The notes beneath the pieces are model-generated. The model saw nothing but the letters and a program-made list of their open reading frames with translations, was not told the DNA's origin and searched no databases. From an archaeon SCG-AAA382B04 (GTDB lineage Archaea > Halobacteriota > Methanonatronarchaeia > Methanonatronarchaeales > Methanonatronarchaeaceae), in NCBI GenBank assembly GCA_003034855.1, contig PZKD01000049.1, positions 1 to 64,000 of the forward strand: a DNA stretch of 64,000 nt, read 5' to 3'. Positions 21,257-59,467 of the stretch are shown piece by piece (position 1 is the first letter of the stretch; every line of letters starts with the position of its first letter). A program made the position numbers and the translations under genes.

Positions 21257-21312
21257 TTTGTCAACTACCTCTCCCTAATCAAAGATTTGAGGACGGGGTC
21301 TTCTCAACCACT
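21257..21312 (+). repeat. Transposon-end-like palindrome, copy d
   Basis: GTCAACTACCTCTCCCTAA, a TCAAA/TTTGA hairpin, then GAGGACGGGGTCTTCTCAAC. The first 18 bases differ at one position from GTCAACTACCCCTCCCTAA at 57.8 kb, and GTCTTCTCAAC also recurs there (57788-57797). It may be a solo element end; it could secondarily act as the terminator of the ftsZ-secE transcript. Confidence 0.5.
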
Positions 21313-21325
21313 ATAAAATAAAAAA

Positions 21326-57749: not shown

Positions 57750-57797
57750 GTGAAGTGCCCCATAACTAATCAAAAATTAGAAAGAGGTCTTCTCAAC
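57750..57797 (+). repeat. Transposon-end-like palindrome, copy b
   Basis: GTGAAGTGCCCC, CTAAT/ATTAG hairpin, then GGTCTTCTCAAC. It has the same layout as copy a at 1.4 kb (minus strand), with GTGAAGTG identical and GTCTTCTCAAC shared with copy d at 21.3 kb. It probably lies at or near the left end of the IscB element. Confidence 0.5.
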
Positions 57798-57803
57798 ATA
57801 TAA

Positions 57804-57853
57804 GGTCAACTACCCCTCCCTAACTCACTTTGTTCGTGAGGAAGGGGCTTGGT
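57804..57853 (+). repeat. Transposon-end-like palindrome, copy c
   Basis: GGTCAACTACCCCTCCCTAA, then CTCAC/GTGAG and CCCCT/AGGGG stems around a short loop, then GGGCTTGGTAGG. CTACC and GGTAG can add a further pairing. It is a near match to copy d at 21257. Confidence 0.55.
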
Positions 57854-58110
57854 AGGAGATTAGCCATATGCGATGTCACTCTAGGGAAGTGGCAAATGAA
57901 CTACGTTCGGGACTGAGTGTCTGACAATACACCTTGCGGGTGCCTCCCAAGCTCCACGCTCTGGAAAACATAGTGGACGACCTCACAGCGTCCTCTTTCC
58001 CAGGCTGTGCAACATCACTACGGTCTACGCCTGTCCCACCATTGGCGATGGAAACCTGACCCGCATCTACGCGGAGATGACCCTTACGGGTCGTAAAAAA
58101 TAGTTTGTGA
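57854..58110 (+). ncRNA. Probable IscB omega-RNA (HEARO-type) scaffold
   Basis: About 260 nt of structured, non-coding, less AT-rich sequence lies directly upstream of iscB, the place where IscB elements encode their omega RNA. Visible pieces include TGGTAGGAG, AAGCTCCACGCTCTGG, the hairpins CCGC-ATCTAC-GCGG and GACCC-TTAC-GGGTC (58079-58092), and ATAGTTTGTGAGAAAT before the iscB ATG. Omega RNAs guide IscB to DNA with a 5' guide taken from sequence flanking the left end; the guide is not identified here. The 5' boundary is uncertain and may include palindromes b and c. Confidence 0.7.
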
Positions 58111-58115
58111 GAAAT

Positions 58116-59379
58116 ATGAAGAAAGTATTCGTCCAAGACAAGAATGGAAAGCCATTGGACCCTACGAATCCTGCTAGAGCTAGAAAGCTCCTTGGACAAT
58201 GACAGGGCTAGGGTTGTAGAGAGACAGCCATTCACCATCAAAATCCTTGACAGGAAAAAAGGAGGATTCTTACACCAAAGACACAACTTTAGGAATCGAC
58301 GCTGGTTACTCAAAAATAGGGTTCTCAGCAGTCACAGATAACAAAGAACTTATCTCAGGAAAAATGGAATTAAGAAACGACATCTCAAAAAAACTTGATG
58401 AGAGAAAAAAGTATCGGAGACAAAGGAGACATAGAAACACCAGATACAGAGAACCCAGATTCGATAACAGAACGAAAGAAGAAGGAGGGGTGGTTAGCTC
58501 CTTCAATCAAACACAAAAAAAAAACACCCACATAAGGTTAGTGAAGAAAATCAAGAAATTATTGCCCATTGATGAAACAGTAGTAGAGGTTGCAAATTTC
58601 GACCAACAAAAGATGAAAAACCCAGAAATCTCAGGAGTAAAATACCAACAAGGAACCCTACAAGGATACAACGTCAAGAACTATTTATTAGAGAAGTTTG
58701 ATTACGAATGTGCTTACTGTAGTAAAAGTGATGTTCCTCTTGAAGTAGAGCACATAACTCCAAAATCAAGAGGAGGAAGTGACAGAGTTTCAAACTTAAC
58801 TATAAGTTGCGTAGACTGCAACCAAGAAAAAGGGCAAACAAACTGCAAAAGAGTTTGGGTATCCAAAGATACAAGAAAGAGCAGGAGAATCCTTGAAGGA
58901 AACAGCCTTTATGAACCAAATGCGGTGGAAAATAGTCAACGAACTAGGATGCAAACATACACTCGGACACATAACCAAGAAGAAAAGACTGGAAGAAGAA
59001 ATAGAAAAATCTCACATCAACGATGCTTTCGTGATTGCTGGCAGTGCTAAACAAGAAAGAAGCAAACAAGTGTTCAAGGTTGAACAAAGACAAAGAAACA
59101 ACAGATGCTTACAACTAAACAGAAGCGGTTACGGAAGAAGTGTGAGAAAAAAAAAGACATAATATTCAGTCAGGAGATTTAATAAAAAAAGAAAAAGATG
59201 GACAAACAAGAAAATCAAAAGGAGTTTTCACCTATGGTAGATATGTTCGAATTGATGATGGAGAAGAGGACTATTGGAAAACCGAAGAGATAGATGTTGT
59301 GAAGTATGGAAAAGGAATACAGGCTGAGTCAATTCATCACCCACCTAAAATCAAAAATTTAAGAAAGGTGCCTTCTTGA
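58116..59379 (+). pseudogene. iscB: IscB RNA-guided nuclease, broken by about seven frameshifts
   Basis: IscB is the IS200/IS605-linked ancestor of Cas9. Reading across frames gives the PLMP domain (PLDPTNPARARKLL, 58152-58193), RuvC-I ([14 protein letters not shown]), the Arg-rich bridge helix ([16 protein letters not shown]), WLAPSIKHK, RuvC-II (TVVEVANFD), HNH ([29 protein letters not shown]), AFMNQMRW, RuvC-III ([12 protein letters not shown]) and a C-terminal [10 protein letters not shown]...[11 protein letters not shown] part ending at 59379. Frame breaks lie near 58197, 58256, 58488, 58518, 58845, 58890 and 59150, several in A or G runs. No other stop interrupts the frames and all catalytic residues remain. 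No TnpA is nearby. Confidence 0.9.
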
Positions 59380-59404
59380 CCATGCAAGATAAAAGAATTA
59401 TTTT

Positions 59405-59467
59405 TTGGCGCGATGATGACCTTGGCCTGTCTGATTTGTGATGAGGATTTTGAGTGCTGAGCGCCAA
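59405..59467 (+). ncRNA. Box C/D guide RNA
   Basis: All four boxes are present in order: C ATGATGA (59413-59419), D' CTGA (59431-59434), C' GTGATGA (59438-59444) and D CTGA (59457-59460). They are framed by a terminal helix TTGGCGC/GCGCCAA. The D' guide is 59420-59430 and the D guide 59445-59456 (GGATTTTGAGTG). By the N+5 rule the D guide selects the wobble C of CUCAAAAUCC, which looks like the anticodon loop of tRNA-Leu(CAA). The D' target (ACAGGCCAAGG) is unknown. It would act with L7Ae, Nop5 and fibrillarin. Confidence 0.85.

What the first reader, a model, noticed from the sequence alone, without database searches (positions are those of the whole stretch)
57750..59379. IscB/omega-RNA locus: guide scaffold upstream of a recently broken RNA-guided nuclease
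The iscB reading can be restored end to end by about seven single-base shifts (near 58197, 58256, 58488, 58518, 58845, 58890, 59150). At least four lie in homopolymers (A6, G4, A10, A9). No nonsense codon disrupts the frames, and every RuvC, HNH and bridge-helix residue visible is conserved. Surrounding genes with similar A runs are intact, which argues against random sequencing error. This is either a very young pseudogene or an element kept for its RNA. IscB is known as the Cas9 ancestor guided by omega RNA; a scaffold-like RNA of about 260-300 nt sits in the canonical upstream position.
Basis: partly seen in the sequence, partly recalled or inferred. Interest (0 to 1): 0.75.

Follow-up and report, generated by a model that had tools for sequence, protein, structure and literature searches.

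The report
Broken, still-multiplying archaeal IscB transposon
The window holds a jumping DNA element of a salt-loving archaeon whose Cas9-ancestor gene (iscB) was recently broken by real frameshifts and which nonetheless has a near-identical second copy elsewhere in the genome; it is mostly a known kind of thing, but it led to related elements that carry only the guide RNA.

Summary
Window 57805-59388 is a complete 1584-bp IS200/IS605-type IscB element: left end GTCAACTACC, an omega-RNA (HEARO) region, an iscB gene broken by about six frame changes with no nonsense codon, and a right end abutting ATAAA, the probable TAM and transposase target. The frameshifts are probably real: a second copy (C111) has other flanks, shares every indel and differs at five other bases. 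The genome keeps one intact 404-aa IscB (C89). Inactivation is young: against a truncated sister, the first 44 codons show four synonymous and no replacement changes. That this copy is kept for its RNA is not shown; its omega RNA has a private change in the probable nexus pseudoknot. The element sits on the end of an older ~55-bp mini-element, so its predicted guide is a transposon end. Beyond the finding, two genera of the family carry nine complete 392-506-bp elements holding only the omega RNA and a shared 3' extension; they keep the RNA fold, and the sister genus shows no intact IscB. The window element is a new member of a known kind; the RNA-only elements are the more interesting part.

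The parts
57750..57804 (+). Older ~55-bp transposase-free mini-element (PATE-like) ending CTTCTCAACATATAAG; its last 16 nt (57789-57804) would be the guide of the omega RNA
   Evidence: 57750-57797 matches C1:106061-106107 at 85%, E 3e-7; same layout as mini-elements in G001 and at window 21260
57805..57850 (+). Left end of the element (GTCAACTACC, subterminal hairpin)
   Evidence: exact boundary against the C111 copy; the same end abuts unique flanks at 16 places in this genome and 29 in G001 versus 0-2 for the control pattern
57805..58105 (+). omega-RNA (HEARO) region
   Evidence: full-length sub-threshold HEARO match 57805-58060; aligns with 16 sister RNAs with conserved, partly covarying pairs
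58116..59345 (+). iscB pseudogene, about six frame changes, no in-frame nonsense codon
   Evidence: NCBIfam guided_IscB 251 bits; frameshift-aware alignment to C89 IscB
59330..59388 (+). Right end of the element (ending CTTCTTGACCATGCAAG)
   Evidence: shared right end at six loci with different flanks
59389..59393 (+). ATAAA: probable TAM and, read on the other strand (TTTAT), TnpA target
   Evidence: ATAAA follows every right end examined among iscB and RNA-only elements

Best explanation
A non-autonomous IS200/IS605-type IscB element. It carries transposase-recognised ends, an omega RNA and a recently inactivated iscB. It was moved by a Y1 transposase encoded elsewhere in the genome: it landed at the TTTAT next to an older mini-element here, and the already broken element occurs at at least one further site. 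The iscB product is dead in this copy. Any omega RNA made from it could act only through another IscB, the intact one at C89 being the obvious candidate, and would point at the element's own empty site (57789-57804 followed by ATAAA). Shown: homology, ends, boundaries, frameshifts, second copy, intact IscB, three Y1 transposases. Inferred: mobilisation in trans, transcription, guide length, TAM, use of the RNA by C89 IscB.
For: IscB families, and an intact 404-aa IscB at C89 with PDB IscB matches, best E 4e-52. Broken copy at C111 with unrelated flanks sharing all indels; further ends 97-100% alike at the ends of contigs C35, C52, C64. Three intact Y1 transposases, none in the element; the C89 tnpA-tnpB element has a homologous subterminal hairpin. 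Ends and ATAAA shared across the family. Young: 4 synonymous and 0 replacement changes in the first 44 codons against C1:19252; differences from C89 by codon position 98/60/210.
Against: The cognate transposase is not identified: the tnpA-tnpB element ends in GTTCAC with a TTAAC-type target, the IscB elements in GTTGAC with TTTAT. The two broken copies are identical over the first 1358 bp and all five differences lie in the last ~230 bp, so gene conversion or assembly of a repeat could have homogenised them. Further copies end at contig breaks and may be intact.
Confidence: 0.85

Rival explanations
1. The element is maintained for its omega RNA, which the C89 IscB uses in trans, so that the nuclease gene is free to decay.
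For: An intact IscB is present. RNA-only elements in two genera keep the omega-RNA fold: a structure derived from iscB-linked rows pairs in 91% of cells of RNA-only rows, 35-48% with partners slid. RNA cores of RNA-only elements in this genome group with iscB-linked ones (C70 with the window group, C1_144 with C89) although their 3' parts are 87% alike, suggesting core exchange.
Against: For the window copy nothing shows selection on the RNA; it alone reads GATGGA where the others keep GATGGG or a close variant in the probable pseudoknot strand, and it pairs at 88% versus about 92%. Window and C89 omega RNAs are only 74% alike. The sister genome keeps RNA-only elements without an intact IscB.
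Confidence: 0.15
2. The frameshifts are sequencing or assembly artefacts and iscB is intact.
For: Several of the sites lie in homopolymers; the two copies could share a collapsed consensus.
Against: Neighbouring genes with long homopolymers are open; at least two sites are not in long runs; both copies carry all of them while five real differences are resolved; iscB copies in G001 are broken too.
Confidence: 0.08
3. The broken reading frame is expressed by programmed frameshifting.
For: No nonsense codon interrupts the aligned frames; most shifts can be read as having the same sign.
Against: Six shifts without a common site; the truncated sister C1:19252 (at the first shift, the only one it covers) and the intact C89 gene need none.
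Confidence: 0.02

Closest known systems
IscB / OMEGA elements (e.g. OgeuIscB, TbaIscB; PDB 7xht, 9k30)
   Same: RuvC-I, bridge helix, RuvC-II, HNH, RuvC-III order; omega RNA upstream with the guide position outside the element; purine-rich motif on the 3' side of the target
   Different: Compact (404 aa in the intact relative), archaeal host, gene broken in this copy, no tnpA in the element
HEARO RNA (Rfam RF02033)
   Same: Full-length alignment beginning at the element boundary; two sister loci above the gathering score
   Different: The window copy is at 25.3 bits, far below the gathering score of 83; a divergent archaeal version
PATEs of Haloquadratum walsbyi (PMC3119063)
   Same: Transposase-free elements made of fused IS605-type ends, 52 bp in one case, presumably moved in trans, often nested
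   Different: Here the ends belong to an IscB family, and an intermediate class carries the omega RNA (392-506 bp)
IsrB (HNH-less IscB relative)
   Same: Present in the same genome at C1:4186, C45 and C52, with high-scoring HEARO RNAs
   Different: A separate lineage; the window protein retains HNH

Membership tests
IscB (RNA-guided endonuclease) | Family score over curated cut-off | tested here: met
   NF040563, 251.4 bits versus 175 for the longest open frame
IscB (RNA-guided endonuclease) | RuvC D/E/H/D, HNH histidine and arginine-rich bridge helix | tested here: met
   [28 protein letters not shown] and the bridge are seen in the frameshift-aware alignment
IscB (RNA-guided endonuclease) | PLMP motif | tested here: not met
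   window reads PLDP; intact C89 relative reads PLMP
IscB (RNA-guided endonuclease) | Intact reading frame (needed for activity, not for homology) | tested here: not met
   about six frame changes, shared by the C111 copy
HEARO / omega RNA | Match at or above Rfam gathering score | tested here: not met
   25.3 of 83 bits; two sister loci of this genome reach it
HEARO / omega RNA | Conserved structure with covariation among relatives | tested here: met
   9 of 44 consensus pairs with double changes over 17 sequences; transfer test
HEARO / omega RNA | Transcribed, with the guide read from the flank | not testable with these tools
   no transcriptome available
IS200/IS605-type element | Subterminal hairpins, precise ends, fixed target next to one end, no target duplication | tested here: met
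   flanks of C78 and C111 share only the ATAAA next to the right end
IS200/IS605-type element | Y1 transposase in the element (autonomous members) | tested here: not met
   three Y1 transposases lie elsewhere in the genome; the element is non-autonomous

The most novel reading that the evidence does not exclude
In this archaeal family IscB elements have given rise to a lineage of transposons whose only retained cargo is the omega RNA plus a conserved 3' extension. These RNA-only elements persist across genera, exchange their omega-RNA core with resident iscB elements, and use the host's remaining IscB in trans (or, in the sister genus without an intact IscB, have some other use for the RNA). 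The window copy would be a recent step on that path.
Probability: 0.2. Interest if true: 0.65.

Novelty: new member of a known kind. Interest (0 to 1): 0.4.

Why it matters
IscB is the ancestor of Cas9, and how guide RNA and nuclease come apart (from one unit to an RNA made in trans) is an open evolutionary question. This genome has the whole series side by side: intact iscB element, recently broken iscB element, omega-RNA-only elements, and end-only mini-elements. That makes it possible to test whether guide RNAs of dead elements are loaded by a living IscB.

Tried and rejected
Rfam at gathering thresholds finds no HEARO in the window. Single-sequence folding of 57750-58115 is not more stable than shuffles, z -0.95, so it neither supports nor denies a structure. 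A search of genome contigs with the broken frame found nothing; the C89 protein worked. The guide derived from a mini-element end suggested that the RNA could attack the family's own right ends: only four near-matches with TAM exist in the genome, with 2-3 mismatches, and mismatches in the TAM-proximal 14 bp abolish OgeuIscB cutting (PMC9640706), so I do not claim it. Private-change counts in the omega RNA do not separate the window copy from others. A cognate transposase by shared terminal letters was not found. The 3' hairpin of the RNA-only elements is only weakly more stable than shuffles.

Full report
Setting. The window is contig C78 of a 1.42-Mb, 132-contig archaeal genome (93% complete). 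Its only same-family relative held is G001; the length of G001's contig C2 (422,090) equals that of a record of Candidatus Methanohalarchaeum thermophilum fetched separately, so the host belongs to the family of that organism, in the Methanonatronarchaeia (inference). The proteins next to the element are ordinary archaeal genes.

The observation. Between 58116 and about 59345 lies an IscB gene in pieces. The longest frame (58247-59050) scores 251 bits against NCBIfam guided_IscB, above its cut-off of 175, and matches Pfam RRXRR and HNH. A frameshift-aware alignment to the 404-aa IscB of contig C89 runs end to end at 67% identity with six frame changes and no nonsense codon. For two of the six (near 58264 and 58515) the sign is ambiguous. 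The pair near 58484 and 58515 can be read as compensating and scrambles only a conserved stretch of about ten residues. The truncated sister copy at C1:19252 reads in frame where the window has its first frame change.

Real or artefact. The genome has a second copy at C111:21014-22603 with unrelated flanks. Over 1590 bases the two differ at five positions (59163, 59235, 59256, 59257, 59301), all transitions; every indel is shared. The window also contains 22 other runs of at least eight A/T or six G/C inside long open frames, so the assembly is not generally prone to homopolymer error. A caveat: the first 1358 bp are identical and all five differences are in the last ~230 bp, so gene conversion or repeat assembly could have homogenised the copies. 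More ends nearly identical to those of the window element stand at the ends of contigs C35, C52 and C64, so there are further, unassembled copies whose iscB state is unknown.

Age. In the first 44 codons the window and C1:19252 differ by four synonymous and no replacement changes plus the indel. Against C89, differences by codon position are 98/60/210, and synonymous sites are near saturation. The gene was therefore under selection until shortly before it broke. The breakage preceded the split of C78 and C111, unless conversion spread it.

Anatomy of the element. Comparing C78 with C111 sets the left boundary at GTCAACTACC (57805). The same sequence abuts unique flanks at 16 places in this genome and 29 in G001, against 0-2 for the reversed control pattern. 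Right ends of six loci end in CAAG followed by ATAAA and then diverge. The element is thus 57805-59388 (1584 bp) with ATAAA at 59389-59393. In the accepted IscB scheme the guide is the 5' segment of the omega RNA and the TAM lies beyond the target's other side (PMC9640706). Applied here, the guide would be about 57789-57804 and the TAM ATAAA. This is inference from anatomy; I recall ATAAA as a reported TAM of another IscB but did not test it.

The left flank. 57750-57797 matches C1:106061-106107 at 85%, E 3e-7, and has the layout of ~55-60-bp mini-elements seen in G001 and at window 21260. These correspond to the PATEs described in Haloquadratum, where IS605-type ends are fused without a core (PMC3119063). 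The IscB element therefore inserted at the ATAAA of an older mini-element, and its predicted guide is a transposon end. Four other genomic sites resemble guide plus ATAAA, none closer than two mismatches.

The omega RNA. The window match to HEARO is full length but weak (25.3 bits, gathering score 83). Sister loci in the same genome reach 86.9 and 86.8 bits (both IsrB-linked), and iscB-linked or RNA-only ones 27-55. An alignment of 17 omega-RNA regions from two genera gives 44 consensus pairs, 9 with double changes. The window copy has two private changes at otherwise near-invariant columns; most others have 0-4. One is in the strand GATGGG, by motif the partner of the nexus-pseudoknot loop CUCCC (my assignment); in OgeuIscB replacing that loop abolished activity (PMC9640706). 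So the RNA of this copy may already be weakened.

Trans partners. The genome has one intact IscB (C89, 404 aa, PLMP, all catalytic residues), related by sequence to solved IscB structures (TbaIscB, E 4e-52). It also has IsrB-type genes and three Y1 transposases. The tnpA-tnpB element at C89 has a subterminal hairpin homologous to the IscB right end, but its terminal and target letters differ, so which transposase moves the IscB elements is open.

RNA-only elements. Following the family led to nine complete elements of 392-506 bp in two genera: G000 C70, C1_144, C54, C67; G001 at C1:289k, 464k, 491k, 745k, 1679k. They start at GTCAAC, contain the omega-RNA region, lack iscB, share a 3' extension not found in the iscB elements (AACAAAGGG, TTTAAACC, hairpin), and end before ATAAA. 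A structure derived only from iscB-linked rows is kept in 91.0% of cells of the RNA-only rows (92.2% in its own rows; 35-48% with slid partners). Double-change cells exceed all but 1 of 500 shuffles, but the number of pairs with double changes does not stand out (89 of 500). In this genome the RNA cores of C70 and C1_144 group with the window lineage and with C89 respectively (support 0.98-1.0 and 0.90), although their 3' parts are 87% alike while their cores are 72% alike. That points to exchange of cores between RNA-only and iscB elements. G001 shows only broken IscB genes at 95% completeness. Whether these RNAs are functional is not shown; recent amplification and recombination could also keep the fold.

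Verdict. The interpretation as a young pseudogene is supported; retention for the RNA is possible but unproven for this copy. The element itself is a new member of a known kind. I could not find in the open-access library whether omega-RNA-only transposons of this type have been described (searches found none); from memory, omega-RNA loci without a neighbouring iscB were reported for bacteria, so I do not claim categorical novelty.

Noticed in passing
L098:285-747; L084:1033-1512(-); L159:94-487; L158:327-718(-); L149:104-554(-); L150:114-597(-); L151:68-573; L152:127-621(-); L153:64-565: Nine complete omega-RNA-only transposable elements with a shared 3' extension and no iscB, in two genera.
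   Followed up: partly
window 21260-21317: About 57-bp mini-element with the same ends (GTCAACTACC to ATAAA), shortly upstream of what looks by eye like a NusG/Spt5 - ribosomal L11 - L1 gene cluster.
   Followed up: partly
window 59409-59463: C/D box sRNA (snoPyro_CD, 48.4 bits) starting 16 bases after the ATAAA of the element, so the insertion displaced whatever lay upstream of it.
   Followed up: no
G001:C2:306989-307420 (L154): The best IscB gene of the sister genome is interrupted by another element with the same GTCAACTACC end; its ~430-bp content is not an omega RNA and is unidentified.
   Followed up: no
G000 C1:4186-4665(-), C45:392-856(-), C52:11978-12193(-), C56:105795-106259: IsrB-type (HNH-less) genes, with HEARO RNAs up to 86.9 bits; several are cut by contig ends.
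   Followed up: partly
window 59163-59301 versus L002: All five differences between the two broken copies lie in the last ~230 bp and most fall on third codon positions of the original frame, which suggests gene conversion of the rest.
   Followed up: no
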